DNA of 64,000 bases from Caldicellulosiruptor bescii DSM 6725 (GCF_000022325.1 NC_012034.1:1692501-1756500), one strand, 5' to 3'. Shown: positions 1 to 17,814, numbered from the stretch's first letter. A program made the numbers and translations. The notes: generated by a model from the sequence alone, not told the origin.

Positions 1-2483
1 CCAATCATATCATAGGTGAGTTTTATTCTGCCAGACAGAACTGCATGAATTCTATCTTCAATAGAATCTTTGTATCTTAAGTTATACACATAAACCTTGT
101 CAAATTGCTGACCTATTCTTCTTATTCTTCCCTGGCGCTGCTCAAGTCTTATTGGGTTCCATGGAAGGTCAACGTTTATAAGAGCACCAAGCGTTTGCAA
201 GTTCAAACCTTCTGCCGCAGCATCTGTTCCTATCATAAGTTTAATTTTACCGTCTAACACAAGCTCTTTTATCTCATCCCGTTCTACCTTTGAATAAACT
301 CCATTCTTGATTATGCCAGATTTATCACCACCCGCATAAATTGCTATGTTCTTGTCTGGCATAGCTGAAGACAACTTTTGTGCAATGGTCCATGCTGTGT
401 CAAAGTACTCAGAAAAGATTATGCAGCCTCTTTTAAGCCACCCCATGTCGTTTAAGATATGCAAAATTTTGTTTAGCTTTGGATCTTTGTCTTTGTTATA
501 TTCAAGAAGATCTATTATTTCTTCCAAACAGAAAAGTTCATCCCTGCCTGTGATACTAATTCTATCAGGCATTTCATCGTCTTCATCCTCTTCAGAAAAG
601 TCGTCTTTAACAATTGCTCTCTTTTCATAAATTGCTTTCGCAGTGTTCAAGCCTGCTTGCATAGAAGAGCCCATCCTTCGCAAAAGTAGTGTCTTGTAAA
701 ACCCTTTCGCGCCTGTTTTCTGCCTTAGTAAATTTGTAAATTCTTCAGCATATTCATAAGCTTTTTTGAGTGGTGCAGAAAGTACAAGACCTTCATCATC
801 ACCTTCACCAAAAAGGACAACATCAATCTTCTTAAGATACGGCTCACCTGTTTCTGGATCAACTGTATTTTCAAGTGTACTTCTTTTCCTCTTGACAATA
901 TGTCTGATAAAAGGATTATACTTTTCCATGAAGTTTTCTTCTATAAGCTCATCTACGATATCCTGCTGGGATGGCAAAAGTGCATCATAATCATCATATG
1001 AAACATACTCATTGTCACCCATACCAAGTGATCTTCTGAGTTTCCCAATTGTAAATGGATTTTCACTTGAGGGAGGCAGAGGATTTCTTATCCAGCTCCA
1101 GTAATAAGCCTTACTTGAAATTTCTTTTTCTCCCCTCACATAATCAATTCCTTCTAAAGGTCTCAGTTGCCACAGGCTAAATGCATCGCCTAAAACCTTT
1201 TGAGAGCCCTGTGCAAGTATATACAGAAGGTCCCAACCCTCAATGGGATGTAGCTGAATTGGAGTTGCAGTTGCTAAAATCATTGCCTTTGTCTTTTGTG
1301 ATAGCTCAAGTAAAAACTTCATAAGGTTGTTAGGCTCTGGCTTTTCAGCGGGCTTATTTAAATTTTGGCGCCTTGCCCTGTGCGCCTCATCAACAATTAC
1401 ACATTCATACTCAAGGTCCAAAAGAGGCTCTACAATATCCGAATTAGAGGTAATCAAGCCTTGTGAAATTATTCCTATTCGCCTTGGACACTGTAAGATT
1501 GGGGGTATGCCATTTGCCTGTGGCCTGTACTCTTGCCCTGTTTCAACTATCCATCTTTTCCCATCCCACACAGCAGAAGGTATATCAAGCATTGTTTTGA
1601 GCTCATCCTGCCACTGCCATAAAAGTGTCTTTGGAACAATTATTAAAACAGGTTTGTCTCCATAGAGCGCTGTTATCTGAGCAATCATACCAAGCTGGGC
1701 GGTTTTGCCAAGTCCAACCTCATCTGCAAGAATGTATCTTGCTCTATCTTTGCAGTGCTCTTCAAACACCATTTTTACAAAATACTTTTGGTGATTCCAA
1801 AGCCCAAAACCTTCCCGGTAAACAGGTGCTTCTATTACAGGGGATGCAGGATCAGGCTCTTTTTTCCATTCCTCAATGCTAACTATATTTCTTTCTGCCA
1901 ATCTTCCTATATTTTCAATTATCAAATCACAAAGCTCACAAGCATAAGGATTATTCCAGAAAAAGTCAAACTCATTTTGCACCCATTCCACGCTCTCAAT
2001 ACTGTCATCTGCCCAAAGTATCTCGTAGTTGCCTTTCCAGGCAGGTAGGGTTTCATTGACACTCCCAACAAATGCAATCTTTCTACCATCTGATAGAGTT
2101 ATGACACCGGCTTTGCCATGTACAAGTCCATATACATCATTTGGTACAACTCTTACCTGAAGTTTACCGCTTTTCAGAAGTTCATAGAGTTTTTTAAACC
2201 TCTCTGGAAACTGTTCAGCCTTAAGCTCAGGTTTTGATTTGAACCATTCCCTGACAAGCTTTTGTTTTGCAAGTTTTGCCACCAAAACGTCCTTGCTCTC
2301 AACCTCAGAGTTGCAAACAACCCTTGCAACTCCTTCTATACTCTCAATTGCTTCACCTGCTATCTCTAAGATAGATGAGCTAAAGTACCCAGCAAGTCTA
2401 TCATAGCTTTTAGCATTTTTCAGGTGTTTGTTTAAAAATCCCTCTGCAAGGTCAATAAGACGTGACGAATATCTTTCAAGCAT
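1..2483 (-). CDS. PLD/SNF2-type helicase of a DUF499-DUF1156 defence operon (3' part missing)
   Basis: Superfamily 2 DNA translocase/helicase, cut off by the left edge after about 827 codons. The first ~170 residues look like a phospholipase-D-like domain: HGK at 122-124 and a GSVNET motif at 140-145. The RapA/SNF2-like motor follows, with motif I (DEVGLGKT, 254-261), DEAH at 365-368 and ATATP at 404-408. Motif VI (QRQGRIRRIGQ) is encoded near positions 111-150. The ATG start lies 79 bp after the methylase stop, and no other start upstream fits. It is the last visible gene of the operon starting at 9335. The domain order resembles helicases of predicted phage-defence operons, including DISARM DrmD. 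The function (DNA translocation or cleavage of invading DNA) is inferred. HKD is not complete in the usual spacing, so PLD activity is uncertain. Confidence 0.85.
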   Translation of the reverse strand, partial: MLERYSSRLIDLAEGFLNKHLKNAKSYDRLAGYFSSSILEIAGEAIESIEGVARVVCNSEVESKDVLVAKLAKQKLVREWFKSKPELKAEQFPERFKKLYELLKSGKLQVRVVPNDVYGLVHGKAGVITLSDGRKIAFVGSVNETLPAWKGNYEILWADDSIESVEWVQNEFDFFWNNPYACELCDLIIENIGRLAERNIVSIEEWKKEPDPASPVIEAPVYREGFGLWNHQKYFVKMVFEEHCKDRARYILADEVGLGKTAQLGMIAQITALYGDKPVLIIVPKTLLWQWQDELKTMLDIPSAVWDGKRWIVETGQEYRPQANGIPPILQCPRRIGIISQGLITSNSDIVEPLLDLEYECVIVDEAHRARRQNLNKPAEKPEPNNLMKFLLELSQKTKAMILATATPIQLHPIEGWDLLYILAQGSQKVLGDAFSLWQLRPLEGIDYVRGEKEISSKAYYWSWIRNPLPPSSENPFTIGKLRRSLGMGDNEYVSYDDYDALLPSQQDIVDELIEENFMEKYNPFIRHIVKRKRSTLENTVDPETGEPYLKKIDVVLFGEGDDEGLVLSAPLKKAYEYAEEFTNLLRQKTGAKGFYKTLLLRRMGSSMQAGLNTAKAIYEKRAIVKDDFSEEDEDDEMPDRISITGRDELFCLEEIIDLLEYNKDKDPKLNKILHILNDMGWLKRGCIIFSEYFDTAWTIAQKLSSAMPDKNIAIYAGGDKSGIIKNGVYSKVERDEIKELVLDGKIKLMIGTDAAAEGLNLQTLGALINVDLPWNPIRLEQRQGRIRRIGQQFDKVYVYNLRYKDSIEDRIHAVLSGRIKLTYDMI

Positions 2484-2562
2484 ATTTTACAAAAAGGCAA
2501 TACCCCGCACCCTTTTTCTGCAGGATACTGCCTTTTTTGGCACCTCCTTCTTGCTTTAAATT

Positions 2563-5457
2563 TTACAGTCTATCGTTTGCCACACGCTCAGCAAGATATG
2601 AAGCTATTTTTGAGTCGTTTTGCCAGTGTTCCATGCCATCAATTTTCTCAAGCCTTGCAAGGTATCTGAATATTATCTCTATCTTGGTTTTGTTGTTCCA
2701 GTATTTTGTTCCAAGTTTGGTCTTTAACATCTCATGTGAAAGTGCAACCGCCTCGGCAGTGTCATTTATTTCCTGGTCTTTTTTTATTGCGCTATTTATC
2801 GCTAAAAGACACAAGCGCAAGATTGTTGTACTAAACGCATGTTTGGTATCAAGAAGTCCCTGCCCAAGCTCGCTTGCTGTCTTCAGTCTTGCCGAATTTG
2901 ATTTTTTAATTGCAAAAAGTTCATCATAATCAGCAACACCAAGACTCCTTGCAGCATCTTGATATGCACCTATTCTTTTTTCACCCCTTGTTTCAAATTC
3001 GATGCCTCTTATATAAAACTTCTCATAGCTTTCCATCTTGCGCCAAATTTCGTAAATGGTATCTTGGTCAAACCCAAGGTATTTCAAACCTTCTGGTACT
3101 ATGTAGCTGCTTGCATATTCGCGCATGGAATCCAAAAACTCTTTAATCTTCTGGTTTGTTGCTTTAAGATTGCAGGATGTCAAAACACGCAATGCTGCAT
3201 AGTAGCCTGACAGCTCCAAATCTGTTGGACTAAAATTAGGCTCTGCTTCATCTTTGTCAAGCTCATACATGAGCTTTATCTGTCTTTCTACCTCTTCTTT
3301 GCCAAAAGGATATAGCTCTTCAATAAATACAGGCTCAAGTTGAGTTCTATCAATCTTCTTTAAAACAACACACACAGTTGACTGGACAAAATTGCCCTCT
3401 GACATATTGTCCTCTGTCTCTGTTGCAATGCTCCATGCATTGACAGACAAAAGCCCTGAGTTAAGCAAAATTTCTGTTAGGTCTGCAAAAACCTGTGAGT
3501 CCTGGTGTGTAAACATGAGGACAAAATAGCCATTTTCAGGCATATTAGAAACTATGTTTTTAAGAATCTCCGTAAAAGCAGTTTTAAACAGTTCGCGGTC
3601 ACCCCGAACTGCCAATGCCCTTTTGCTGTCTGTATACCAATCTGGAAAAACTTCTTTCAAAAACTTCTTATCCCATGCTAAGAAGAACTCAGAGAGCTCA
3701 TGGTAATTTATTGCATCAGCATAAGGCGGGTCTGTTATCCAAATGTGGCAGGCTTGATTTACATCGCGGGCATCGGTAGGATAAACTATTTTGTGATTAT
3801 TTGACAACAAATAAGGCTTTAAACTGTCTAAAAACCATGGTAAAACAGTCAATCCTCTTACATTAAAATTGAACAACGTATTCAATGCCTGATTGTAAAA
3901 TGTGTTCTTCCCATTATCCTCACGCGTATTGTCCCATAGACATAACTTAGAATTCCACGTAACACACCTATTAACCCCCAGTAGCCCCACAATCTTCTCC
4001 TCTTTCGTCTTTGCCTTTTTGTCAATCAGTTCCATCAAAAGCCCATGTAAAAGTAACTGTCGTAGATTGAAAAGCTGATGCCAATATGCCCAACCTCTTT
4101 CTCTGTACAATCTGCTTGTTTCTTCACCCTCTTCAATCATATCACTTGGAATATATCCTTTTTGCTGCCACTCCTCAAATCTTTCTTTCAAAAGTTCTAT
4201 AACTTTCTTTTCCCTTTCAAAATCCTCATCATCCGGAGCTTTGTAGTATCTTTGCCCTTTTTCATCCTCATATCTTATGCAATACAATCTTTCTTGAAAA
4301 ACATCATCTTCTCTTGGCACAAATTCATGTTTTTCCCAGCGTCTTAGCCCCCAAATTGTTTTGCTACTCTCATCAACCTTATCTCCCCTAATTGACGAAA
4401 TACTTGTTTCCATTTTACAATGTGGACAAATTAAATAACCATCCTTTACAGTTCCGTTTTTAGCTGCTTGTTCGAGCTCTGATTGGCTGACTTTCGTTTT
4501 GATTTCTATATCAAACCCTTTTTTAGCTGGGTTTTCGTGCAACACAGCAATAGTTTTAGAATTTTTGCCAATTACCAAAGAAGGTAGTAGAGGAACTTTG
4601 AACCCACATTCAGGACAAATTGTCTCAACGCAGTATAAATATGCATTTGCTCTATGCCCTTTTGAGTTGTGCTCAATCTGCCACTGAGTTACAATCTTGT
4701 CTGCCTGCTCAAATATTCTTTTTTGAAAATCTTTTAGCTTTTCAATCGCATCTTCGGGCAGGCTCAAAAGATTCAAAGCTGCCCACGTAAGAAGCATTGC
4801 AATTGGATTTAGGTCTGACGCAAAAACACCAAACCCAAGCCTTGCTGCTTCAAATGGAATACTCCCTCCACCGCAAAAACAATCTCCAACTGTTGGAAGT
4901 TGTCCAAATCTTTTTTTGCCAAGCTCTTCAACAAGGGCTTGATATGAATATGCATTTGTTCCAAGATGCTCATTTATCTCATCCCAAGCGCTCTTAGGCA
5001 GATTTTCTATCTCTTCGGGACGCTTGCAATATCTTAGCTTCTGTTCATATGGCATCCTTTTAAATATTCTTTCTTGAAATCCTTCCCTCTCAGCTTTTTT
5101 TAAATCTTTTTTGTAGCTTATTTTCCCCTCATCTGCAACATCAAAATATTTTGCCTTTTCTTCTTCTGTTGCAAACTCATAAGCATCCTTTGCTGATATG
5201 CTACTTTTTCTTCTCAGCTTCAAGCCCTCTTCATCCATAGTCATAAGCTTAAGAAAAATTTTCATATCTTTTTTGGGGTCATCTGTTGCAGGCAAAAGAA
5301 CTCCCAAAAGTAGTGCACGCACAAGCACAAGAGGTTTTCTGCCCCACCATTTGCCAAGTCCTGTTAATGTCTGTCCTGCACCTGCTTTTCGCTCTTTAAA
5401 TGCCTCCTTTGAAAGTTTTGAAACTGGAAATTGAACCTCTATTAAAGATTTCTCCAT
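2563..5457 (-). CDS. DUF1156 adenine-specific DNA methylase, defence-associated
   Basis: Predicted DNA N6-adenine methyltransferase of the COG1743/DUF1156 family, 964 aa. The DUF1156 signature is at the N-terminus (GKWWGRKPLVLVRA, 35-48). A SAM-binding motif follows (DCFCGGGS, 192-199). CPEC at 281-284 and CPHC at 344-347 form a likely zinc ribbon. The catalytic TDPPY is at 575-579. Family members modify host DNA in several defence systems (type 3 BREX carries a COG1743 methylase). Here the likely job is to mark self DNA while the ATPase and helicase act on foreign DNA; that division of labour is inference. It starts 40 bp after the DUF3780 gene and precedes the helicase. No frameshift is seen. 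Confidence 0.9.
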   Translation of the reverse strand: MEKSLIEVQFPVSKLSKEAFKERKAGAGQTLTGLGKWWGRKPLVLVRALLLGVLLPATDDPKKDMKIFLKLMTMDEEGLKLRRKSSISAKDAYEFATEEEKAKYFDVADEGKISYKKDLKKAEREGFQERIFKRMPYEQKLRYCKRPEEIENLPKSAWDEINEHLGTNAYSYQALVEELGKKRFGQLPTVGDCFCGGGSIPFEAARLGFGVFASDLNPIAMLLTWAALNLLSLPEDAIEKLKDFQKRIFEQADKIVTQWQIEHNSKGHRANAYLYCVETICPECGFKVPLLPSLVIGKNSKTIAVLHENPAKKGFDIEIKTKVSQSELEQAAKNGTVKDGYLICPHCKMETSISSIRGDKVDESSKTIWGLRRWEKHEFVPREDDVFQERLYCIRYEDEKGQRYYKAPDDEDFEREKKVIELLKERFEEWQQKGYIPSDMIEEGEETSRLYRERGWAYWHQLFNLRQLLLHGLLMELIDKKAKTKEEKIVGLLGVNRCVTWNSKLCLWDNTREDNGKNTFYNQALNTLFNFNVRGLTVLPWFLDSLKPYLLSNNHKIVYPTDARDVNQACHIWITDPPYADAINYHELSEFFLAWDKKFLKEVFPDWYTDSKRALAVRGDRELFKTAFTEILKNIVSNMPENGYFVLMFTHQDSQVFADLTEILLNSGLLSVNAWSIATETEDNMSEGNFVQSTVCVVLKKIDRTQLEPVFIEELYPFGKEEVERQIKLMYELDKDEAEPNFSPTDLELSGYYAALRVLTSCNLKATNQKIKEFLDSMREYASSYIVPEGLKYLGFDQDTIYEIWRKMESYEKFYIRGIEFETRGEKRIGAYQDAARSLGVADYDELFAIKKSNSARLKTASELGQGLLDTKHAFSTTILRLCLLAINSAIKKDQEINDTAEAVALSHEMLKTKLGTKYWNNKTKIEIIFRYLARLEKIDGMEHWQNDSKIASYLAERVANDRL

Positions 5458-5497
5458 CTTCTTCCATCTCCTTTTAGGTCAAGAATTTCTGTCAGTA

Positions 5498-6100
5498 TTA
5501 CTCTTCATATATAACTTTTTGTTCTTTGATGCTTTCAAAGTCAAGCTGTTTAATTTGTTTTTGACTTACTGGATTATCAAGCAAAGCATATTTTAGTGCC
5601 ATTCTCCAACCTTTTCTGTCATTTACCCTGCCTGTTGCAGCATTTGTAACACCATACAACCACCATCTCTCTTCTGGTCGCAAACCTTGCCAGTTGACAA
5701 TTGCAACAGGCACCTGCGAATCATCAGTGCAATCTTCCAGTGCCCAGAGCAAAACCACAAGTTCTTTCCCCAAAAGTCTGTGAACGGGATTTTGCCCAAC
5801 TTTCCACTTAGATTTCTTAAAACCCTCCTTTTCAAGCCGAAAATTGAACTCCTGTGCAATATACGGTGCAACTCTTTGCCACAGCCATTTAGGAACAATT
5901 ACTTTGAGCTGGTTGTGAAGAGGACTGTTCTCATCAATATCTTGTGCTTCCTTCCCCTCTTGCCATATAAATCTTTCATACACCTTTACTGTCTCGTTCT
6001 TCCCTTGAGGAATTACCACCATAAAATGGTGCTGCGTCTCAGATGGTACATATCCAAAGCCAATTGAGGCTGCAGCGTCTTTCTTTTTAGATTTACTCAT
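5498..6100 (-). CDS. DUF3780 protein of the DUF499 defence operon
   Basis: A 200-aa protein matching DUF3780 by context and by its start (SIGFGYVPSETQHHFMVVIP region). The family has no known enzymatic activity. It occurs almost only between DUF499 and DUF1156 genes, so it is probably a subunit or adaptor of that complex. Its ATG overlaps the last 8 bases of the DUF499 gene, which indicates translational coupling. The protein is soluble, with no signal peptide or membrane segment. Many Trp and Arg residues in the C-terminal half (for example LRPEERWWLYGVTNAATG) suggest a compact folded domain. Confidence 0.82.
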   Translation of the reverse strand: MSKSKKKDAAASIGFGYVPSETQHHFMVVIPQGKNETVKVYERFIWQEGKEAQDIDENSPLHNQLKVIVPKWLWQRVAPYIAQEFNFRLEKEGFKKSKWKVGQNPVHRLLGKELVVLLWALEDCTDDSQVPVAIVNWQGLRPEERWWLYGVTNAATGRVNDRKGWRMALKYALLDNPVSQKQIKQLDFESIKEQKVIYEE

Positions 6101-9100
6101 TCTGTGTTATTGCCTCCTTGAAGTCATGAAGCGTCTTGCCTTTTTGCTTTATCCATTCTTCAAAGTCTTTTGCATCTTCAAATAACAGTTCTGTAATAAC
6201 AGCTCTCACGTTTTGAATCCCATCATTGTAGAAGTCGGTTTTGACCTTTTCAATATGTGTAAAAATCTCGCTTAGTTCTACCCCTTGTGGCTTTTTACAT
6301 GTCAGGACAATATAGTTATCATCATCTCTATAAATATCAAGAGAATAGGCAACAAACTTTCCTTTGTAATTTTTCAATAGTTCAATTTCTCTTTGAAGTT
6401 CTTCTATACTAAAAATCAGAATTTTCTTGCTACCTGAAAGTTTTAATTTAACCGGTTTTGTATAATCAAGTTCTATTTGCTTAATTACTATGTTTCCTGT
6501 AACATCTCTTCTCACAGGAATATTTTTTATCTCTGAAAAAACACCATCTTTTTCTGCAACCACATTAATTACCCTTGTATTATCTGGAATTGTAATATCA
6601 CCATTTTCGGCAACTTTGCCATTATAGCGCGGGTTTGAACCATCTGTTGTATACTTTACAGTTGCCTGCGGAGCTGTTCTTATTTTTATGTGAGCTCTGC
6701 CTTCTTGGTCGCAAAATCTTATATTGTCATCAAGTAAAATTTCACATTCATATTTTACAACATCACCTTTTGGATGATACCCTGTTGAATCAATGCAAAG
6801 GAAACTGAGCTTTACTGCTTTTGTCCTGAACTCATTAATATTTGGCACAACCGGTGAGTTCTCTGATACCTCCTTATCACCCTCTTCATAATGTACAACA
6901 TCACCAAACATTGGTATGAGCTTTAAAACTACCTCGCCTGTGTCAAAGTCAGGGGATACAAACTGAACTTTTACTGTTGTTTTGTCCTTTGCTGCCTCAC
7001 CTCTTAAAACAATCCCTCCACTTTCTTTCCACAAACCTTTTGAAAGCATCTCGCGCTTTAAATTCTCCAGGGCCTCTGGTGGATGCCAAAACCACCTTGC
7101 ATCTCGCGCTGCTCTTTCAACAATCTCGGACCAAGACATTGACTCTCTTGTGAAGAGCAAATTCTCTACCTTTTCGCGAAATTCATCAATGTCATTTACT
7201 TCTATATACTTTTTGTTAAGCAACACTTTTTGAATGACAATCTCTCCATCTCGGTTGTTGCCAAGAAGAGCTCTAACTCTGTCTATCCCTTTTGAACCTT
7301 GAGAATCACTATTTTCACTCGCTGGCAGATATTTTAAATCTTCAGAAATAAGTTCAGCGTTCTGTTTAGTATATGGCCTCTGTGGATAGTAAATCTTGTT
7401 AAAAGTCTCTCTCAAGACTTCTAAAACTGCAGTTTTCATCTTGCTCTGTTCATTTTCTGCTCGTTGATATTCTGTGTCAGTCTCTGGAACACCCTCTTTT
7501 CTGAGCTCATTTAGCACGTTTTCCCAACACATATACTCTCTTATTTTCTCTAAAAGCGTATTATACATGGTAGTAGAACCTGTTAAAAAGAGAAGTCTAT
7601 TTTTGTAAGTTTGATTTTGCCAAAAACCAATCAGTGCTGGGTTAAGAGACCCTTTTGAGTCATAAGGCTTTGAAATAATTAGCGTTACATTGTTCATATC
7701 CACATTGATTTTTGATATGTCATTTGGCAAAGCGACAATCTTTTGGTACACCTTCTGATAGCAGTTTAGATTCCTTGGTGAAAAATATTCATAAAGAAGC
7801 CTCTCTAACACTGCCTCCGCTTCATCTAATGTATACATACTTTTGAATTTTCTCATGCGCGCAACTACATTTTCCATTGGTGTAATATATATTCTGTCAT
7901 TTGCATCAATTCTTGTATGTAATGAATTTTGCTTAAATTCTTCAATTATGTTCGCAAGACTGCTTAAATCTTTGTTTGGAGAGCTCATATATGCAAAAAG
8001 CTCACTTGTTGTAAGACCTAATGGAGATTTTGTAATTTCAGACAGCGAAGACAGCAAAATCAATTTTGCAACTTCACTTGCTAAGTTAGTATTGTACTTT
8101 TGGTCAATAGCCTTTGCAGTTGTAATATGAGCTGTTGAATAAACATCGTGCATAATGGCATTTTCTAAACTCTGCTTTATATTTATAATCTCTTCGCGCG
8201 TGTTGTAATCGCTCAGGTCAAAGTCGTATGGTTCAATTAAATACTTCTGCTTTGCAAGTTTCCCTTCTTCACTGTAAAGATATCTTATGTAGTGCCTCAT
8301 AAGACGAATAAGTCCTCGTGTTTGCTGGAAATTGACATTTTCCCTGAATCTGCTAACAAGCTCCATTATTGCAGGATGAAACGGATATGTTCTCTTAATC
8401 TCAGTGTAAATTCGCTCTGGCTCAACTGTAGTCTGTCCTTTTCTATTACCTTCTTCAATAACCTCTTTGTAGGCTTTTGCAATCTCTTCTACATCTGGGT
8501 CATTTTCAGGGTTTTGAGGATACTCTTTGAAAAATCTTTTTCTCAAAATACAGTATACATCATTTGTGACCATATCAACCGGCTGGATAGAAGAGGCAAC
8601 ACGGGTTGCTTCTTTGTCAAGCTCTGTTGCTAAAGCACTTTGTAAAAGTTTCCCTCCTTGCTCATACGCTGCTTGAAGGTCTGCCACAACCACCATTACG
8701 TTTGAAAGCTCTTTTTTCTGGATTGCATTGAAAAGATTCGAAAGCCCAATTGAAACAACCTTTCCAAAGTTACTCTCACCAACTGGAATACTCTGGACAT
8801 ACTCAAGATATAGCGGAAGCTCATCAAGCAGTATCAAAAGCGGGTCCCCTGCTAATAGCTCTGTCCACTCTCTATCGCCAGGTGCAAACATATGATTTTG
8901 AAGGGACTTGTTCAAAACCTCTTGCTTGCCAAGCTGGTTCGCTATTTCTACCCATGGGATTGAATTTGTCCATCTTCCAGTAAATACTGCAAGTCTTATT
9001 CTACCTGTGTACATATATGGATAATCATCACCTAAAATCTTTTTTCTGATTTCCGGATACTTTGCCAAAAGCCCCAAAGCAATCATGTTATGGGTCTTGC

Positions 9101-9335
9101 CACCACCCATTGCCTGTCGCAGAACAATTACACCTTGTTCATCATCAATTCCACTAAATCTTTTGAATGCAACATCAAATAATCTTCTCATACCGTTTGT
9201 TATGTATGTTTGTTCAAAAAACTTTTCCGGCTTGATTTTGTCAGAAAGAAGGTCTGAGATTTCCTGAACATCTTCTGAGCTTCTTGTTGTGAACACATCA
9301 TCCCTGGGTTTACAAAGCTCGAAAAGAGTTTTCAT
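6093..9335 (-). CDS. DUF499 P-loop ATPase, first gene of defence operon
   Basis: Large ATPase, 1080 aa, of the DUF499 family. The P-loop (GGGKTH) is at 77-82 and Walker B (LILLDEL) at 167-173. The N-terminus, with EDVQEISDLLSDKIKP at 21-36, is typical of the family. The C-terminal part has a stretch like the ligand-type beta domain seen in chitobiase-like modules (TDGSNPRYNGK). The ATG has a GGAGG box 9 bases upstream. The gene opens a four-gene operon with DUF3780, DUF1156 methylase and PLD/SNF2 helicase. This set recurs in defence islands and has been predicted to act against phage. The role as the ATP-driven hub, analogous to BREX BrxC/PglY, is inference. A decayed second DUF499 5' end lies at 16757-16966. 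Confidence 0.88.
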   Translation of the reverse strand: MKTLFELCKPRDDVFTTRSSEDVQEISDLLSDKIKPEKFFEQTYITNGMRRLFDVAFKRFSGIDDEQGVIVLRQAMGGGKTHNMIALGLLAKYPEIRKKILGDDYPYMYTGRIRLAVFTGRWTNSIPWVEIANQLGKQEVLNKSLQNHMFAPGDREWTELLAGDPLLILLDELPLYLEYVQSIPVGESNFGKVVSIGLSNLFNAIQKKELSNVMVVVADLQAAYEQGGKLLQSALATELDKEATRVASSIQPVDMVTNDVYCILRKRFFKEYPQNPENDPDVEEIAKAYKEVIEEGNRKGQTTVEPERIYTEIKRTYPFHPAIMELVSRFRENVNFQQTRGLIRLMRHYIRYLYSEEGKLAKQKYLIEPYDFDLSDYNTREEIINIKQSLENAIMHDVYSTAHITTAKAIDQKYNTNLASEVAKLILLSSLSEITKSPLGLTTSELFAYMSSPNKDLSSLANIIEEFKQNSLHTRIDANDRIYITPMENVVARMRKFKSMYTLDEAEAVLERLLYEYFSPRNLNCYQKVYQKIVALPNDISKINVDMNNVTLIISKPYDSKGSLNPALIGFWQNQTYKNRLLFLTGSTTMYNTLLEKIREYMCWENVLNELRKEGVPETDTEYQRAENEQSKMKTAVLEVLRETFNKIYYPQRPYTKQNAELISEDLKYLPASENSDSQGSKGIDRVRALLGNNRDGEIVIQKVLLNKKYIEVNDIDEFREKVENLLFTRESMSWSEIVERAARDARWFWHPPEALENLKREMLSKGLWKESGGIVLRGEAAKDKTTVKVQFVSPDFDTGEVVLKLIPMFGDVVHYEEGDKEVSENSPVVPNINEFRTKAVKLSFLCIDSTGYHPKGDVVKYECEILLDDNIRFCDQEGRAHIKIRTAPQATVKYTTDGSNPRYNGKVAENGDITIPDNTRVINVVAEKDGVFSEIKNIPVRRDVTGNIVIKQIELDYTKPVKLKLSGSKKILIFSIEELQREIELLKNYKGKFVAYSLDIYRDDDNYIVLTCKKPQGVELSEIFTHIEKVKTDFYNDGIQNVRAVITELLFEDAKDFEEWIKQKGKTLHDFKEAITQNE

Positions 9336-9573: not shown

Positions 9574-11499
9574 TTACATAAAATCTCTATATTCTACAAT
9601 ACCCGATTTGGCAAGTAATTCATAAAATTTTTTAACATTTTCTGCAGTTTGGCAAGGATTTGCTCCGACATCTCTATATTTACTAAAAGTTATTATTACA
9701 CGTCTTTTCGCTCTCGATAAAGCTACAAAAAAGGCGCAAGTATCTTGTTCAGGTTGATTTTTAATACTCCAAAATGCTGAATCTTCTAAACCAATGAATA
9801 CAACAGTATCATATTCGAGCCCTTTACTTTTATGAATAGTCATAATAGGAATACTGTTTATTCCTATAAAGTTAGTTATTGCTTTTGACCAATTATTTGT
9901 TATTTCAAATTCATTCCACAATAATTTAATAGACTTATTCATTAAATCATTAAACCATGCTGTATTTCTATACTGCGGAAAATAGGATATTAATCTATCC
10001 ATTTTTAAATATCTAATTATAATTTTATATAATTCTACAATTTGTTTCTGATTATCAATCTTAAGTAGTTTTTCGTTTGCAAACCTCAATAACTCTGTTA
10101 TTTCAGATTCAAGTTTAATTAAAAACCTCTCTGGAGTGTCATCATCATATCCATTTAATATTTTTATAAAATCGTATACAAATGTGTATGAATTATTTCC
10201 ATTAATATTTAATGCTAATGAAAATAAATTAATTATAAACTGAATTATTTCCTCATTTAATAAATCTGAAACTTCGCCTTCATCTCTTGCATTCATGCTA
10301 TTTTCAGCTAATGTTTTAATCAGCATATTTGTGTATTTAGAAGGACGTTGTTTTACCAAAACACAAATATCTCTATGACTTAAATCTTCTGAATTTAGCC
10401 ACTTCTTTATGTTTTCAGATAAAATTTGAGCTTCTTTAATATAATCATTAAAAATCCAAACTTCACATATTCCATCATCTTTACTCCATTTTTTGCTATT
10501 CTCTATTTTTAAATCGGACAAATCTATTTTTTCACCAAATGCTTCTTTTATAAAAACTTTTTGCAATTCAACTAAACGCGGCGCAGACCTATGATTCATC
10601 AGTAAATTTATTCTTTGGGCATTGAAATCTTTTTCAAACAATTCAAATGAATTTCTTAGTGCTCCTGCCCATTCCATAATTCGCTGTTTATTATCTCCTA
10701 CTGCAGTTATTACGGCATTAGACCCGAGAAAACAAGTTTTCAATAAATCATATTGTACTCCTGTTATATCCTGAAATTCATCTAAAAATACATGTGAATA
10801 TGTCGCTCGCAATGCTTTAAGAACAAAAGGATTTTCCCTCAAGATATATTCAGCAAGTCTTGAAATCATTGGAAAAGTCAGAGCAGGTTTAAAATCTTTA
10901 TCTCCTTTCAAAAATAATTTCCATAATTCGTTAATCATCCATTCTTCTAAATTGTTAGGTTCATTATTAAAGGGAAGCTTTTTATCTGTCATTTTTTTAT
11001 TAATAATATTTTCTATTGAAAGACTATGAATTCCATCAACATAATCACCTGTAAGTAAATGTTTCGGTTCTTTTCCCTCAAATCTTAACAAAATGCTTCG
11101 CTTCCCCTCTCTTAATACAGAAGGATTAATATCATAATTAACATCAGGTCTGTATACTTCAGGAAGTCCATACAGAAATCTATCCAAAAGGCTCTTAGCA
11201 AAAGCATCAAAAGTTAGTGATACAAATCTATTCGCCAATTTCTGACCACATCTTTTTTGAACCCTTTCTGCTAAATTTTTGGCAGCTTCTTTTTTATAGC
11301 TGATTGCAAGTATCCTTTTTGGTGAATAGCAAATACCCGTTTGAAGTAAAAAACAAGCCCTTTGAGCAAGCAACTCTGTTTTACCTGAGCCAGGTCCAGC
11401 TATTACTAAATAGTTGCAATTACTTTTAACTACTATCTCTGCATTTTTTTCAAGTTCAATTCCATCAGCAGGTTTCCATTGTTCCTTTGGTATCAGCAT
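9574..11499 (-). CDS. UvrD/Rep-like superfamily 1 helicase, Gabija GajB-like
   Basis: Superfamily 1A helicase, 641 aa from the chosen start. Walker A (AGPGSGKT) is at 34-41. A DE-box occurs in LDEFQD, and near the C-terminus are TIHKSKGLEYD and a final SRAKRR motif. It carries the helicase core only, shorter than UvrD (~720 aa) but longer than typical GajB (~500 aa). The ATG chosen has AGGAG 9 bases upstream. An ATG three codons earlier sits directly on the ribosome site and is unlikely. It overlaps the OLD nuclease gene by 35 bases, the arrangement expected for class 2 OLD/Gabija pairs, where GajB senses DNA ends and activates the nuclease. Assignment as Gabija is by domain order, not by tested similarity. 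Confidence 0.88.
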   Translation of the reverse strand: MLIPKEQWKPADGIELEKNAEIVVKSNCNYLVIAGPGSGKTELLAQRACFLLQTGICYSPKRILAISYKKEAAKNLAERVQKRCGQKLANRFVSLTFDAFAKSLLDRFLYGLPEVYRPDVNYDINPSVLREGKRSILLRFEGKEPKHLLTGDYVDGIHSLSIENIINKKMTDKKLPFNNEPNNLEEWMINELWKLFLKGDKDFKPALTFPMISRLAEYILRENPFVLKALRATYSHVFLDEFQDITGVQYDLLKTCFLGSNAVITAVGDNKQRIMEWAGALRNSFELFEKDFNAQRINLLMNHRSAPRLVELQKVFIKEAFGEKIDLSDLKIENSKKWSKDDGICEVWIFNDYIKEAQILSENIKKWLNSEDLSHRDICVLVKQRPSKYTNMLIKTLAENSMNARDEGEVSDLLNEEIIQFIINLFSLALNINGNNSYTFVYDFIKILNGYDDDTPERFLIKLESEITELLRFANEKLLKIDNQKQIVELYKIIIRYLKMDRLISYFPQYRNTAWFNDLMNKSIKLLWNEFEITNNWSKAITNFIGINSIPIMTIHKSKGLEYDTVVFIGLEDSAFWSIKNQPEQDTCAFFVALSRAKRRVIITFSKYRDVGANPCQTAENVKKFYELLAKSGIVEYRDFM

Positions 11500-13522
11500 A
11501 TTTTTCATCTCCTAAATTAGATATATCAGAGTAGGGGTCATTTTCTAATAATTCTTTAGCCCTGTTTATAAGGTTTTTAAAAACATCTGGCATGTTTGAT
11601 TTTATACTATCCCCAAGTTCTATCAAAGCTTGAAAATGAGTATTTGGCTTACCTCTACCCAAAAATAAATATTTATACCAGACCATCAACTCCTTTTCAT
11701 TATCTGAATAAGTTATACCAGTAGCATTATCTGATTTCAAAACACTTTTTACAACATTGTCAATATAACGTGCATAGTCTTCTTTTTTTGTAATTTTATC
11801 AGGAATTCTTGGACCACCTTTTTTAGGTATAAGTTTTTTATATGCTTCCTCATAAGTACTTAACATTGAAAAATCTATATCAAGTGGAAATGAAAAAAAT
11901 ATATCAAATTGTTGAAGATGTTTTGCAAACTTTTCTATTTTCTCTCTGCTATATTCGTCATATGACCAATTTGGCATATTGTCAAATTCTTCTTTAGATA
12001 AATCTGCTAAAACACTTTTTTCATCATAGCCACTTTGTATAAGCTGATTCATTATATAATGCAACTTTTCCCATCCCCCTGTATTTCTTTCGATATCCAT
12101 ATCAAGCAATGTTATATAATTAATACCAATATCTTGCAGAAGTCTCCAAAAATGATTTACAAATCTTCCTCCAAGTGGCACAATACTTATTGCACAGCTA
12201 TCAGCTGACAAACCGCTCTTTTCAATCATTTTCTTGATTATTAGTTCTTCACTATCACCTTCACCTAATATTACCAACCTGGAAAAGTATATCTCAGGAT
12301 AAGCTTTTACAGCCTCCTTTACATATTTAAATGCTTCATCAATTTGTTCTGGTAAAATAATCCTTGAAACTTTAGTACATAAATCCTCATTTTTTATTCT
12401 TAGGTGACGTATTTCTGTAGGCTCAATTCTACTTATAATACTTGCCGAATGTGAAGTAAGTATAACCTGTGCATTTTGCTTTGAGGAAATATCTTTTAGG
12501 TTATCCATAATACGTCCTAATAAATGAGGACAAACATGATTTTCTGGCTCTTCTATTGCAAGCAAAACAAGTGTCGAAGGTTCTTTGTTAAAAGGACTTT
12601 TAGAAGAATGTTTTGACTGTAGGATTCTATTCTCAAATTCAAGAAGGGAATTTACCAATGTTAAATAAAATAGCGAGCGCAATCCATCGCCCAATTCATT
12701 TACTGTATAAGACTTAGGTTCAGAAGTTGGATAAAATTCTATTTCAACTTTCTTTAAAACAGTATCCAAGTCTCCCCTACTAAAACGCATGTGTGCCTCT
12801 TTATACCTATAATCCCTATGATATTTCTTCCACGTATTACTAATAATTTCTTTTACTAAAGATACTCCTGGATTTTTTGCAAAAAGTTTGTCAATCTCTT
12901 CCGTCTTCTCCCTTATCTTACTTTTGAAATCTTCCTCCCATTCTATGCTATTGAGTATTTTCCAGAGTATAGAGTTCGAAACATTTCTTAATTGAGGAGA
13001 GACATCTCTTATAGCCGGAACATATACAAATAGAATTCTTGATAAATGCTCTCGTTTTGCTTTTTCGTAATCGCTGTCTTTTTCTCTACCTTCCGGGGCT
13101 TTAATAAATAATATTTCTGTTTCAATATCTCCATCAGGAGTATTACTTTTTTGCCATGAAGATTTCAAACATATCCTTACATATGGTAAAACGCCAGGTT
13201 CTCTAATAACCATATAATTCCAAAAAGATGGTATACTATTGAGTTCAGTATTCTCTTGCCGCAATTCTGGAAAACTTAATTTTACCTCTATGTATAAGTC
13301 GTTATTTTCAATTTCTTGCGGATCCATGCTTTTAGGTACATGGAAATCAGAACGTTTAATCTCTTTATTGTCACTCCCAAATATTTTCATTAATGCATGT
13401 AAAACTGCTGTTTTTCCACAGCTATTTGCACCTATTAAAGCAGTTAGCTTATCAAATTCAATTACTGTTTCCTCAGGACCAAAGCATCTAAAATTTCTGA
13501 TTTTTATTTTATCAATATACAC
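11465..13522 (-). CDS. OLD-family ATPase/TOPRIM endonuclease, Gabija GajA-like
   Basis: AAA ATPase plus TOPRIM nuclease, 685 aa (GajA is about 580). The ABC-type ATPase has Walker A GANSCGKT (31-38), the signature region NELGDGLRS (275-283) and Walker B LLAIEEPE (320-327). The TOPRIM part has EGDSEE (421-426) and the metal-binding DMD at 474-476. A C-terminal extension of about 150 aa follows. In Gabija, the GajA homologue is a sequence-guided DNA-nicking enzyme held off by nucleotides and assembled with GajB. Start is GTG with AGGAG 9 bases upstream. It lies 36 bp after the NACHT gene and overlaps the helicase gene, so all three should be co-transcribed. Alternative: a class 2 OLD outside the strict Gabija clade. 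Confidence 0.88.
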   Translation of the reverse strand: MYIDKIKIRNFRCFGPEETVIEFDKLTALIGANSCGKTAVLHALMKIFGSDNKEIKRSDFHVPKSMDPQEIENNDLYIEVKLSFPELRQENTELNSIPSFWNYMVIREPGVLPYVRICLKSSWQKSNTPDGDIETEILFIKAPEGREKDSDYEKAKREHLSRILFVYVPAIRDVSPQLRNVSNSILWKILNSIEWEEDFKSKIREKTEEIDKLFAKNPGVSLVKEIISNTWKKYHRDYRYKEAHMRFSRGDLDTVLKKVEIEFYPTSEPKSYTVNELGDGLRSLFYLTLVNSLLEFENRILQSKHSSKSPFNKEPSTLVLLAIEEPENHVCPHLLGRIMDNLKDISSKQNAQVILTSHSASIISRIEPTEIRHLRIKNEDLCTKVSRIILPEQIDEAFKYVKEAVKAYPEIYFSRLVILGEGDSEELIIKKMIEKSGLSADSCAISIVPLGGRFVNHFWRLLQDIGINYITLLDMDIERNTGGWEKLHYIMNQLIQSGYDEKSVLADLSKEEFDNMPNWSYDEYSREKIEKFAKHLQQFDIFFSFPLDIDFSMLSTYEEAYKKLIPKKGGPRIPDKITKKEDYARYIDNVVKSVLKSDNATGITYSDNEKELMVWYKYLFLGRGKPNTHFQALIELGDSIKSNMPDVFKNLINRAKELLENDPYSDISNLGDEKYADTKGTMETC

Positions 13523-13558: not shown

Positions 13559-16500
13559 TTATTTGCAACTGTTTTTTGTCCGCCATTGTCTTATAATATT
13601 AGCAACTTTATCTGCGTAATCAGGATTTTTTAAACCGAAGCAATTTAAATTTTTCAACCAATCTTCATTTCCAACATAGTCTATGATCGTTAAAACATAG
13701 TCCCAAAAGTCTTTTTTATTCTCTGAATTCAAAATCTCAAAGCATATTTCAAAAACATATTCTTGGAAAAGTGAAGATAATATTTCTTGAATAAAGTAAG
13801 TTAAATAATAGCTGCTACGAAATGGTACATAAAAATCAGATACTTGAATTATTGCCTCTCTTAGATTATTAGGATTTTCCAATTCATCCAATAAGCATTC
13901 TTTTGCCTTTTTATACTCAGCAGCTATCATAGGTAGCTTTTCGGATTCGTTAGATATAAACATCTTATAAATACCATACAAGAAAAATATCTTATAGGTA
14001 TATTCCTTGCTGTTCTTAAATTCAGAAAGCAAAATATTTAATTTTTGGGCATTAGGTTTCCTATATAGTCCTTCAAGCGCATATGTTCTAACCCCATCCC
14101 ATTTCCCATTATAAAAATAGTGTTCAGATGTATAATAACAGTATCTCCTCAATATTTTAAGGGTATTATCATCGTTAAATTCAGATATATAAAATAACAT
14201 ATCAGATAAAATTATTTCATTTTCATTCAATTTCGGATCGTTAAATGCGAATTGTAAAGCTTTCTTATATGCTTCATCCCCAATGATTTTTCGTACCTTG
14301 GCAGGAGCACTCCATAAATACTCAATTTCTTCAAAGTTTAATGTTGCCAATTGCTGACCAATGTAATAATCATTATTTTTTTCACAGTTTAAAGCTCTTT
14401 CAACAAGTTCTCTTATAAATTCATCATTATCACACGGCTTAAGTTCTCCCATTAACTCCATTACCTCTATAATAAGATTGTTTGCAAGACCCCAAAAATG
14501 TCCTTTATATGTTTTTTTAAACATCTCATAAACCTCTTCTACACCTTTAGGTTTGATTCTAAAATATGAATCTAGCTCTAAAAGTATATAATATAAAAAA
14601 TCCTTATCCTTATACTTAAAGCACTTCAAATAAAAATCCTTAACCTTATCCCATTGTTCATCACTTGCTTTATCAAGATGTTTAATAAATCTTGCGGCGA
14701 GTATTGTAGCGGCTTTACCATATTTAAAAGGATTGGTTAATAAGTCCAGGACTTCAGCAAGACGCATTCTTCTAAAAACCTCTATTCCAGGCATGCTGTT
14801 GAAAATGGCATTAATATCACTATTTTTAAACCTGAAACTACTAAAATCTTTATAACCCTTCTCCTCTTTACTTTTCAAATATTCAAACACAGCCATTAAT
14901 AACCTTTTATCATAATAAAAACGGCTGCAAATACATAATGCCTTGTCAAAGTTTTCATTATTTTCTTCATCATTTGAAAATACTTTTCTAACGAAATCTA
15001 CTACTCTCTCACTTACAAAATCATCAATTCTTTCGACTGCTTTTTGAAAAAGGCTGGATGGTATATTTTCAATATTTTTTTCAAAAAATGAATTTTCATT
15101 TTCAAATGCTATCAATAGAGGCTCCATTAATACTGGATTTTTGAAAACATCAGCAAGAAAATCAGAATCATCTTTTTTTTCTAAGATATACACACTAGCA
15201 AAAAAATCTACAAGATTATTATGTTCAAACTGATAATAATCGTTTAATTCTTGTATAAATTTGCAACTAACCAAACAATCTCTTACATCATCTATGTTAA
15301 TTTGGCCAAAAAGGGAAAATTCATTTAAAGCATCTGCAATGAGCCTGTTAATATAGCATAAATTTAAACGCACTTCCATATCATTTAATGTTTTGAAAGC
15401 AATATATGAAACAAGATAAGCTAAAAACTTTTCCTTTAATTTAAACTTATTTATTATGTCACGATTCCATTTAAGCATTTGATTAAATAATTCTTTATAA
15501 AAATAATGTGGTTTGCTACTAATTTCTTCTAAGAAAACAATAATACTTTTTTCTTGTTTTAATGTCTTAATTATAGACACAACTATAGTCAGATTAAATG
15601 GATTTGATAATAATTTTAAGATGTTTGTATTATTATTACAAAAATCTTTAATAATATTTAACTTTTCTGGCACAACTCTTGAAACAAAATTCAATATAGC
15701 ATTATATTCTAATGGTTTCATTATATACTTTTCAAAATTTACGTTTTCAATTTTACTAACTTGATTATTTCTACAAGTAATAACAAATGTGTTTTTATTA
15801 TACTTTAGGTTTTGAAGACATTTTATCTTAAATTCCTCAAAATATTTTTCAGATAATTCATCAAAACCATCAAGAAATATTTGAAAACGACCTTCTAATA
15901 AGAGCCTATTTATAAGCTCTATGTTAATCTGATTAAAACCCTTTTCGATATTAATTTTTATATATTCAGGCAAAGCTTCGCCACAATAACTCCTAAGTTC
16001 ACAAAATACTGGTATAGATTTTAAATTCTTTTCTTTTAAACATTCTAAAAACCATCTCTTAACGAACGTACTTTTGCCTGCTCCAGCTTCCCCTGTCAAT
16101 ATAATGTTCTGTTTTGTTTTAAAGTCAATCTCCGTCCCATTTGAAACAGAGACAGCCTTTAATTCAAGTGCATAAATATCAAATTCCAGAAGCTTTCGAT
16201 GATAGTTTTCCCTTATTTCCCTCGAAGCAAGCAGAGGATACTTATTTTCGATATAATATTTTAGTTCGCTTTCCAAGTTAATTGAGAAAACATCGACCTC
16301 AAAATATTTACTAGCTTTGACTCTTACATCATAATTGTTAAGAATAAGAGAAATTATTAAATCAATATCTACTATGTCTAAATCCCAACCATACTTTGAG
16401 CATTCTGCCCTACATTCTCTTCTAATATCATCTTTGACCTTTGAATTGCAGCATAAAACAACTCTTCGCACATCTTTAGCATATTCCCAATAACCCACTT

Positions 16501-16756
16501 CTTTTATATCTCTAAGAAGTTTATTTTTTAAACTTTTCTCATCAGAAGTTGTATATTGAAAAGCATATATGCTTCCGTCAGGAAAAAATTTTATTGAATC
16601 CGGAGTACCTGGCACGGGCTTATCTTTATATAAATGCATACCATGTGAGTCAAGGTTAGAATATTCAGGATTGTAATGTTCCAAAATTTCATCACATAAC
16701 CTATGAAACTTATCATCAGATATACTTACTAATCCATCATATAGTTGTTTTCTCAT
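13559..16756 (-). CDS. NACHT STAND NTPase with N-terminal nuclease-like domain
   Basis: A 1065-aa predicted immune sensor/effector. Residues 1-145 form a restriction-endonuclease-like (PD-(D/E)XK) domain: GTPD at 50-53, then FQYTT at 66-70, where relatives usually have EYTT. The NACHT module follows, with P-loop GEAGAGKST at 212-220 and Walker B FLDGFDEL at 284-291. The remaining ~700 aa are helical and poorly conserved, as in the sensor part of Avs-like and bNACHT proteins. I chose ATG at 16756 because AGGGGTG lies 7 bases upstream. The frame is open for 29 more codons, but these fall in a decayed DUF499 remnant. It leads an operon with GajA- and GajB-like genes 36 bp downstream. The ligand it senses is unknown. 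Confidence 0.85.
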   Translation of the reverse strand: MRKQLYDGLVSISDDKFHRLCDEILEHYNPEYSNLDSHGMHLYKDKPVPGTPDSIKFFPDGSIYAFQYTTSDEKSLKNKLLRDIKEVGYWEYAKDVRRVVLCCNSKVKDDIRRECRAECSKYGWDLDIVDIDLIISLILNNYDVRVKASKYFEVDVFSINLESELKYYIENKYPLLASREIRENYHRKLLEFDIYALELKAVSVSNGTEIDFKTKQNIILTGEAGAGKSTFVKRWFLECLKEKNLKSIPVFCELRSYCGEALPEYIKINIEKGFNQINIELINRLLLEGRFQIFLDGFDELSEKYFEEFKIKCLQNLKYNKNTFVITCRNNQVSKIENVNFEKYIMKPLEYNAILNFVSRVVPEKLNIIKDFCNNNTNILKLLSNPFNLTIVVSIIKTLKQEKSIIVFLEEISSKPHYFYKELFNQMLKWNRDIINKFKLKEKFLAYLVSYIAFKTLNDMEVRLNLCYINRLIADALNEFSLFGQINIDDVRDCLVSCKFIQELNDYYQFEHNNLVDFFASVYILEKKDDSDFLADVFKNPVLMEPLLIAFENENSFFEKNIENIPSSLFQKAVERIDDFVSERVVDFVRKVFSNDEENNENFDKALCICSRFYYDKRLLMAVFEYLKSKEEKGYKDFSSFRFKNSDINAIFNSMPGIEVFRRMRLAEVLDLLTNPFKYGKAATILAARFIKHLDKASDEQWDKVKDFYLKCFKYKDKDFLYYILLELDSYFRIKPKGVEEVYEMFKKTYKGHFWGLANNLIIEVMELMGELKPCDNDEFIRELVERALNCEKNNDYYIGQQLATLNFEEIEYLWSAPAKVRKIIGDEAYKKALQFAFNDPKLNENEIILSDMLFYISEFNDDNTLKILRRYCYYTSEHYFYNGKWDGVRTYALEGLYRKPNAQKLNILLSEFKNSKEYTYKIFFLYGIYKMFISNESEKLPMIAAEYKKAKECLLDELENPNNLREAIIQVSDFYVPFRSSYYLTYFIQEILSSLFQEYVFEICFEILNSENKKDFWDYVLTIIDYVGNEDWLKNLNCFGLKNPDYADKVANIIRQWRTKNSCK

Positions 16757-16966
16757 AAAAATTTCACCCCTCATTATTGATACCTTGTAAAATTTCCTAA
16801 AAACTTCATTAAAAAATATTTCAATTATTTGGAACTTGAGCACGGTCTAAAACATTTGTCGGGTTGATCTCATCAGAAAGTAAATTGGAAATTGCTTGGA
16901 CATCTTCTAAGCTACATGTTATAAAAAATTTTCATTGGAGTGCACATTTCTCCAAGAGTTTTCGCA
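16757..16966 (-). pseudogene. decayed 5' end of a second DUF499 gene
   Basis: Read leftwards in three frames, this stretch spells a DUF499 N-terminus. First comes KTLGEMCTP (compare KTLFELCKP in the intact gene). Then, one frame over, SLEDVQAISNLLSDEINP (compare SSEDVQEISDLLSDKIKP). After a second shift comes FFNEVFRKFYKVS (compare LFDVAFKRF). It has no start codon and ends where the NACHT gene begins. The match is to the family rather than an exact copy, so it derives from a diverged homologue, not a recent duplication of the gene at 6093-9335. It gives the NACHT gene a spurious 29-codon upstream extension. Confidence 0.8.
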
Positions 16967-16997
16967 GTACCTTCTTCTTCTGTACATTGTTTGATTT

Positions 16998-17753
16998 TTA
17001 TACACAGTACTTATTGATGAGTTTTATACAACATTTAATAACAAAAATAACTTTTCCTTTGTTTGCAGAACCACCTCTATGCTGAACTCTATTTCTAATA
17101 GTATGTAAATATTCCAATTCTAATTTTTCATTGTTTGAAATTAAACCTTTTTCAAATGCTTCCTTTACTACTTTCTTAAAACCATATGAAGCATTCTTAT
17201 GTAAACCCAATCTGTATTTTAACCACGTTTCAATACATTGATCAAGCAAAATTATTATCTCACTATTACTACTCTCACCTGAAAACCACTTACTAATTAA
17301 AAATAGAATTTTCTTTACTATTCTAACTTCTTTTGAAGCCTTTTTGTTTGATTCCATATTCGTCAATAAAGAAGGTTGCAGAGCTAATGGATGAGGTTGT
17401 GCATTCAAACTTGTCGCAATTTCAAATATTCCTTCTGTGATTTTCTTTACTCCTTCGTAGTTCGATTTGTAGAAAAGAGCAGTTAGATTTACTGCTACAC
17501 TTTTTAGCTTCTTCTTTTTCTCGTATCTTAATAGATAGAATTTTATAGCATTTTTTATACTCATGTTCATCAATTGCATAACTGCTAAATCTCCATCAAC
17601 AGTCACATAAATAACTAACCTTCTTTTTCGAGTTAAAATAAATTGTAACTCTAAGCCATATAATTCATAAAAAGCTTTCATATATCTGAGAAAATCAAAA
17701 GCTAAAGAAAAATGTCTATTGTTAATCTTAAACTCAAAATCGTATCCAGCCAT
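16998..17753 (-). CDS. uncharacterised protein with C-terminal HEPN-like motif
   Basis: A 251-aa protein I cannot assign to a named family. Near the C-terminus it carries RNRVQH (R220, N221, H225), the RNxxxH signature of HEPN ribonuclease/toxin domains, within a mostly helical 110-residue segment. The N-terminal 130 residues have beta-rich stretches and could be a sensor or dimerisation domain. The start chosen is the ATG at 17753, with AGGAG 11 bases upstream. A GTG four codons earlier sits almost on the ribosome site. It lies in the defence island between a NERD protein and a DUF499 remnant, all on the same strand. A role as an RNA-cleaving effector is only suggested by the motif. Confidence 0.65.
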   Translation of the reverse strand: MAGYDFEFKINNRHFSLAFDFLRYMKAFYELYGLELQFILTRKRRLVIYVTVDGDLAVMQLMNMSIKNAIKFYLLRYEKKKKLKSVAVNLTALFYKSNYEGVKKITEGIFEIATSLNAQPHPLALQPSLLTNMESNKKASKEVRIVKKILFLISKWFSGESSNSEIIILLDQCIETWLKYRLGLHKNASYGFKKVVKEAFEKGLISNNEKLELEYLHTIRNRVQHRGGSANKGKVIFVIKCCIKLINKYCV

Positions 17754-17814
17754 ATAAGACACCACTCCTGAAAATTATGGTATTTTTTCTGAAGTAATTT
17801 TTATTAATTGTACT

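What the first reader, a model, noticed from the sequence alone, without database searches (positions are those of the whole stretch)
1..9335. DUF499-DUF3780-DUF1156 methylase-PLD/SNF2 helicase operon
Seen: the complete order with 8-base overlap of DUF499 and DUF3780. Known: this group recurs in defence islands and has been predicted as an anti-phage system; its parts echo BREX (ATPase, methylase) and DISARM (SNF2/PLD helicase), but PglZ, BrxL, DrmA and DrmB are absent here. Mechanism, modified base and target are, to my knowledge, not established.
Basis: partly seen in the sequence, partly recalled or inferred. Interest (0 to 1): 0.72.

Follow-up and report, generated by a model that had tools for sequence, protein, structure and literature searches.

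The report
BREX-related (Type-2 BR) defence operon
This is a complete four-gene bacterial anti-virus operon of a kind described only by computation, and its least understood protein carries, in many relatives, a tail that looks like a handle for the DNA-replication clamp, while several viruses carry a version of that protein without the tail.

Summary
The order DUF499, DUF3780, DUF1156 adenine methylase, PLD/SNF2 helicase lies at 9335-1 on the - strand, with the stated 8-base overlap; only the helicase is cut by the window edge (full length 889 aa, read from the genome). It matches full-length PADLOC and NCBIfam 'anti-phage' models and the 'Type-2 BR (BREX-related)' system of Rakesh & Krishnan 2026 (PMC12839542), so the locus is a new member of a known, experimentally untested kind. 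The genome holds no PglZ or BrxL, so it is not BREX. Left of the window the operon goes on into a DUF262/HNH GmrSD-like nuclease whose start overlaps the helicase stop (TGATG), a swappable cargo slot. Two leads go beyond the paper's text. (1) DUF3780's disordered C-terminal tail often carries a beta-sliding-clamp-binding motif (QLNLF, QLSLF, QLSLSL): 25 of 98 tails against 0.7 expected from shuffling; the window's own copy is degenerate (QLDFE). (2) Several phages encode tail-less lone DUF3780s, one family under purifying selection. A clamp-tethered restriction complex, with phage decoys, is the most novel reading still open.

The parts
6093..9335 (-). DUF499 STAND/ORC-like AAA+ ATPase, 1080 aa, with FnIII-like (CHB_HEX_C/Fn3_assoc) stretch at residues 883-934
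   Evidence: Pfam PF04465 7.1e-28, PF13290 4e-5; PADLOC DUF499 6e-166, HmaC 1.9e-47; NCBIfam NF042962 681 bits, below its 1200-bit cut-off
9093..9110 (-). Walker A MGGGKT of DUF499 (residues 76-81); Walker B LLDE at residues 169-172
   Evidence: K80 in 101 of 102, T81 in 102 of 102, D171 and E172 in 101 of 102 homologues
5498..6100 (-). DUF3780, 200 aa; no known fold relative; 8-base overlap with the DUF499 gene
   Evidence: Pfam 3.1e-49; AlphaFold2 model pLDDT 91, pTM 0.86; no BFVD match at E<=0.001, best PDB Z 4.0 over 62 residues
5501..5575 (-). C-terminal tail of DUF3780 (residues 176-200), low model confidence; QLDFE (5534-5548) sits where relatives carry a beta-clamp motif QLxLF; degenerate here
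   Evidence: pLDDT falls to 72 and 50 in the last blocks; tails and statistics
2563..5457 (-). DUF1156-headed N6-adenine DNA methyltransferase, 964 aa; motif I DCFCGGG (4864-4884), motif IV DPPY (3721-3732), Cys pairs CPECG/CPHC in the TRD insert
   Evidence: Pfam DUF1156 2.6e-21; NCBIfam NF042963 1241 bits; D192, F194, G196, D576, P577 and Y579 in 94 of 94 homologues
1..2483 (-). PLD(HKD)-SNF2 helicase; last 62 residues and the stop lie left of the window (889 aa in all)
   Evidence: L002:12314-14983; PLDc_2 1e-9, SNF2 1.6e-16; NCBIfam NF042964 1185 bits; H122, K124, G140, S141, N143, K260 and E366 in 88 of 88 homologues
2112..2120 (-). HGK of the single HKD motif (HxK-x7-D-x7-GSxNE, residues 122-144)
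1701..1718 (-). SNF2 Walker A VGLGKT (residues 256-261)

Best explanation
A Type-2 BREX-related (BR) system: a restriction-modification-like defence complex. Steps shown by sequence: DUF499 is an intact P-loop AAA+ ATPase; the DUF1156 protein is an intact N6-adenine methyltransferase with a zinc-ribbon-like target-recognition insert; the helicase has an intact SF2/SNF2 motor behind one intact HKD nuclease motif, so two chains are probably needed for one nuclease active site; DUF3780 is a folded adaptor with a flexible tail. Inferred: the methylase marks self DNA with m6A at one motif; DUF499 assembles the scanning complex; on unmethylated incoming DNA the SNF2 motor translocates and the HKD nuclease cuts. 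DUF3780 is a core adaptor rather than an enzyme, and in many relatives its tail probably hooks the complex to the replication sliding clamp, so that methylation or attack follows the fork. The DUF262/HNH gene whose start overlaps the helicase stop is an accessory modified-DNA restriction enzyme that covers phages escaping by base modification.
For: Full-length family matches; the published Type-2 BR definition is met feature by feature; near-invariant catalytic residues in 88-102 homologues; invariant gene order across phyla, plasmids and viral contigs; presence in 4 of 7 genomes of the genus, as expected of a mobile defence unit; location beside Gabija, NACHT, NERD and OLD genes; restriction nucleases (GmrSD, Mrr, OLD, Schlafen) recur in the variable slots of the operon; clamp-motif statistics.
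Against: No phage assay or methylome was available for any Type-2 BR system. A same-genus genome has its only DUF1156 MTase split by an insertion sequence with a 9-base target duplication, while the DUF499, DUF3780, helicase and DUF262 ORFs remain open. A simple R-M system should not survive this unless the insertion is polar or, as in BREX, restriction needs the methylase. The window's own clamp motif is degenerate.
Confidence: 0.78

Rival explanations
1. BREX-like replication block without DNA cutting: the methylase is part of the restriction complex, the HKD domain is structural or regulatory, and the system stops phage replication rather than degrading DNA.
For: DUF499 and MTase resemble Type-3 BREX BrxC and BrxXI; an MTase-disrupted operon with an open helicase ORF exists in the genus; a clamp-binding tail fits fork targeting.
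Against: HKD residues H, K, S and N are kept in 88 of 88 helicases, which argues for catalysis; the published survey reports the HKD fusion retained in 83% of taxa.
Confidence: 0.3
2. DUF3780 is a modified-base reader that replaces the TUDOR domain (the published proposal), and its tail is only a docking peptide for another subunit of the complex.
For: Some DUF3780 proteins are fused to RAMA or ASCH/PUA readers; the E. coli EC14 copy is fused to DUF4357; 27 of 130 tails show no clamp-like peptide at all.
Against: The tail motif is the known clamp consensus in both its pentamer and hexamer forms, far above chance and background; no reader fold was found for DUF3780 itself.
Confidence: 0.35
3. 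Decayed or non-defence locus: the operon is a remnant or a housekeeping epigenetic methylase without antiviral role.
For: No direct phenotype known; a relative carries an insertion in its MTase gene.
Against: All four ORFs are intact with intact motifs; defence-island setting; patchy presence in the genus.
Confidence: 0.07

Closest known systems
Type-2 BR (BREX-related) system, Rakesh & Krishnan, Nucleic Acids Res 2026, PMC12839542
   Same: DUF499 ATPase with FnIII-like stretch, stand-alone DUF3780, DUF1156 N6-MTase, N-terminal HKD on a SNF2 helicase, GmrSD/OLD nucleases alongside
   Different: Nothing in the core; the TGATG stop-start overlap with DUF262 and the flanking duplicate of the helicase 3' end are local details. 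The clamp-like tail and the phage orphans are not mentioned in that paper's main text
Hma system (HmaABC; Type-1 BR)
   Same: Helicase, methylase and ATPase homologues (HmaA 1.6e-33, HmaB 1.5e-29, HmaC 1.9e-47)
   Different: Hma has no DUF3780; its helicase carries a C-terminal PD-(D/E)XK nuclease and an N-terminal TUDOR instead of HKD
Type-3 BREX
   Same: BrxC-, BrxXI- and BrxHII-like parts
   Different: No PglZ and no BrxL anywhere in the genome
DISARM
   Same: SNF2 (DrmD-like) and PLD-like parts
   Different: PLD and SNF2 are fused here; no MZB/DUF1998 domain (expected in DrmB) in the genome; different methylase and ATPase

Membership tests
Type-2 BR system | DUF499 AAA+ ATPase with intact P-loop | tested here: met
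Type-2 BR system | Stand-alone DUF3780 inside the core locus | tested here: met
   PF12635 3.1e-49; gene order
Type-2 BR system | DUF1156-headed N6-adenine MTase with DPPY | tested here: met
Type-2 BR system | HKD nuclease at the N-terminus of the SNF2 helicase, in place of TUDOR | tested here: met
   PLDc_2 at residues 54-176, SNF2 from 231; HKD residues conserved
Type-2 BR system | FnIII-like domains before the C-terminal RRM of DUF499 (about half of taxa) | tested here: met
   CHB_HEX_C_1/Fn3_assoc match at 883-934; the RRM itself was not modelled
Type-2 BR system | Anti-phage activity | not testable with these tools
   needs phage challenge
BREX | PglZ | tested here: not met
   no match in the whole genome
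BREX | BrxL (most types) | tested here: not met
   no match in the whole genome
DISARM | DrmB with MZB/DUF1998 (domain assignment from own knowledge) | tested here: not met
   no PF09369 match in the whole genome
beta-clamp-binding protein (DUF3780 tails) | QL[S/D]LF or QLxLxL peptide in a flexible terminus | tested here: inconclusive
   strongly enriched in relatives; degenerate QLDFE in the window's own copy
beta-clamp-binding protein (DUF3780 tails) | Physical binding to DnaN | not testable with these tools
   needs a binding assay

The most novel reading that the evidence does not exclude
DUF3780 is the replication tether of Type-2 BR systems: its tail binds the bacterial sliding clamp so that the methylase/nuclease complex rides forks (much as DNMT1 does with PCNA). 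Phages that depend on the host clamp counter it with tail-less DUF3780 decoys that fill the subunit's slot and uncouple the complex from the fork.
Probability: 0.3. Interest if true: 0.82.

Novelty: new member of a known kind. Interest (0 to 1): 0.52.

Why it matters
The published survey counts Type-2 BR systems in over a thousand taxa, but no experiment on one was found here. If the tail binds the sliding clamp, DUF3780 gets a function, fork targeting of BREX-like systems gains a molecular handle, and single-residue mutants can test it. If phage orphans are decoys, they would be the first anti-BR proteins. The DUF3780 gene of this operon sits in 17 of 5426 E. coli genomes (complete operon with a Mrr nuclease in the one inspected), so laboratory E. 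coli K-12 tests are within reach.

Tried and rejected
BREX and DISARM membership: rejected on missing PglZ, BrxL and MZB/DUF1998. DUF262 as a conserved fifth core gene: rejected; the slot behind the helicase holds many different genes (GmrSD in 6 of 54, OLD in 4-5, Mrr in 3), in line with the auxiliary nucleases already reported. Fold relatives of DUF3780: BFVD had no match at E<=0.001, and PDB via VIA-align gave best Z 4.0 over a 62-residue helical part, within the noise the tool describes. PHROGs has no family for the phage DUF3780 orphans. Pm34 gp4 as clean proof of a decoy: weakened, because gp5-gp4 is a 1126-base fragment 92% identical to an enterobacterial operon and also holds the DUF499 C-terminus, so it may be debris. 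Regex specificity: the same pentamer also occurs at one folded MTase site in most sequences, so only tail matches were counted. Promoter scan upstream of DUF499 was not above shuffles. No Rfam family in the window.

Full report
Observation. Pfam, PADLOC and NCBIfam agree on all four, though two of the four NCBIfam matches fall below that library's strict cut-offs. Only the helicase is incomplete in the window; the genome (window = G000:C1:1692501-1756500) gives its full 889 aa.

What follows the helicase. Left of the window a 583-aa protein with a GmrSD_N/DUF262 domain and an HNH-like DHHIFP segment (read by eye) begins on the helicase stop (TGATG). Behind it lie an OLD-family ABC ATPase/TOPRIM gene and an IetA-like AAA gene. 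A diverged copy of about 95-97 bases of the helicase 3' end lies between DUF262 and the OLD gene. In two relatives the helicase is followed directly by an OLD gene. I infer that a helicase-end/DUF262 cassette was recombined into the locus. One relative, G277, has the same helicase-DUF262 junction.

Conservation. Gene order DUF499-DUF3780-MTase-helicase is kept in nearly all loci long enough to tell, in Firmicutes, Proteobacteria, Bacteroidota, Chloroflexota, Planctomycetota and others, on plasmids and on viral contigs. Extra genes sit in variable slots: GmrSD, OLD, Mrr, Schlafen, Macro, Fic and others. Catalytic positions are near-invariant: helicase H122, K124, G140, S141 and N143 of the HKD motif in 88 of 88, Walker A and DEAH-box positions mostly in 87-88 of 88; MTase motif I and DPPY positions mostly in 92-94 of 94; DUF499 Walker A and B in 101-102 of 102. 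The HKD spacing is HxK-x7-D rather than the usual HxK-x4-D, and there is one motif per chain, so a dimer is likely (inference).

Known kind. PMC12839542 defines Type-2 BR systems by exactly these parts and already reports GmrSD- and OLD-type auxiliary nucleases. The whole genome has no PglZ, BrxL or MZB/DUF1998 match. The locus is therefore a new member of a known kind. No wet-lab test of a Type-2 BR system was found in the library searched; only one related Type-1 (Hma) helicase test is cited there.

A natural experiment. In same-genus genome G277 the MTase gene is split by an insertion sequence of about 1.3 kb flanked by CAAGAAAGG, with DUF499, DUF3780, helicase and DUF262 ORFs open; it is that genome's only DUF1156 gene. 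Either the insertion is polar, or, as in BREX, restriction depends on the methylase. It argues mildly against a plain R-M toxin-like nuclease.

DUF3780. The model is confident (pLDDT 91) except for the last 20 residues, and no fold relative was found. The tails of operonic DUF3780 proteins are variable in length but often end in QLNLF, QLELF, QLSLF, QIDLF, QMTLF, QISLF or, in one clade, QLALEI/QLSLSL. These are the clamp-binding consensus QL[S/D]LF / QxxLF and the QLSLPL-type hexamer (PMC12309361; PMC3716654). At 90% clustering, 25 of 98 tails match the strict patterns, against a shuffle mean of 0.7 and a maximum of 4 in 2000; QxxLF is in 35 of 98 against 1.1; at 60% clustering 5 of 22 against 0.1. 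In other ORFs of the same loci the last 35 residues match in 10 of 1385. About a fifth of tails have nothing similar, and the window's own tail is QLDFE, so the claim is for the family, not proven for this protein.

Phage orphans. DUF3780 without the other three core genes occurs on viral contigs L131, L140, L141, L145-L150 and in Proteus phage Pm34. L141 and L146 carry it near a terminase gene, L147 on a contig with a tape-measure gene. L141, L146, L147-L149 and Pm34 stop at or just after the last helix of the fold and lack the tail; a model of L146 has the same order of strands and helices as the operonic protein and ends there. L147-L149 show dN/dS of 0.155 and 0.065 (the latter with saturated dS), so they are kept as functional phage genes. 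In the tree the orphans fall beside different operonic clades, which suggests several captures; support is moderate. Pm34 is special: its gp5-gp4 is a 1126-base piece, 92% identical to the E. coli EC14 operon, holding the DUF499 C-terminus and the first 169 codons of DUF3780. It may be recent debris or a fragment in use.

Mechanism and confidence. The best account is an R-M-like, clamp-guided BREX-related complex (0.78 for a functional Type-2 BR defence acting on DNA; about 0.5 that DUF3780 tails with a strict motif bind DnaN; about 0.35 that some phage orphans are decoys). Complex assembly, cutting and clamp binding are inference.

Noticed in passing
window 9574-13522: Complete Gabija pair directly upstream: GajA (11465-13522) and GajB (9574-11508), full-length PADLOC matches.
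   Followed up: no
window 13559-18474: NACHT ATPase of 1094 aa, a 255-aa protein with only a weak CARF-HEPN match, and a NERD-domain protein resembling MAD6/PglW N-termini: further defence-like genes.
   Followed up: no
L002:10426-10522 and L002:12314-12420: About 97-base diverged duplicate of the helicase 3' end flanking the DUF262 gene, a possible cargo-exchange scar.
   Followed up: partly
L036:7304-8622: Insertion sequence inside the DUF1156 MTase gene of a same-genus genome, with 9-base target duplication CAAGAAAGG; a related copy (89%) lies in the window's own genome at L002:6404-7735.
   Followed up: yes
L152:19331-20456 (KY420199.1): Proteus phage Pm34 carries a 1126-base fragment of an enterobacterial Type-2 BR operon (DUF499 C-terminus plus truncated DUF3780), 92% identical to E. 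coli EC14.
   Followed up: yes
L147:9633-10411, L148:8115-9031, L149:509-1407: Phage two-gene cassette: a ~100-147 aa protein that looks ribbon-helix-helix-like by eye, overlapping by 4 bases a tail-less DUF3780 under purifying selection.
   Followed up: partly
L188:14038-25322: 17 of 5426 complete E. coli genomes carry the DUF3780 gene of this operon on the chromosome; in strain EC14 the full operon has a CopG-like gene in front, DUF4357 fused to DUF3780 and a Mrr nuclease overlapping the helicase stop.
   Followed up: partly
L121-L130, L132-L134, L136-L139, L143, L144: Whole or nearly whole Type-2 BR operons on IMG/VR viral contigs, so the system may travel on (pro)phages; host contamination of the contigs was not excluded.
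   Followed up: no
L048:10574-19664: Thermobrachium celere locus with a split MTase before the helicase and a second, also split, MTase behind it.
   Followed up: no
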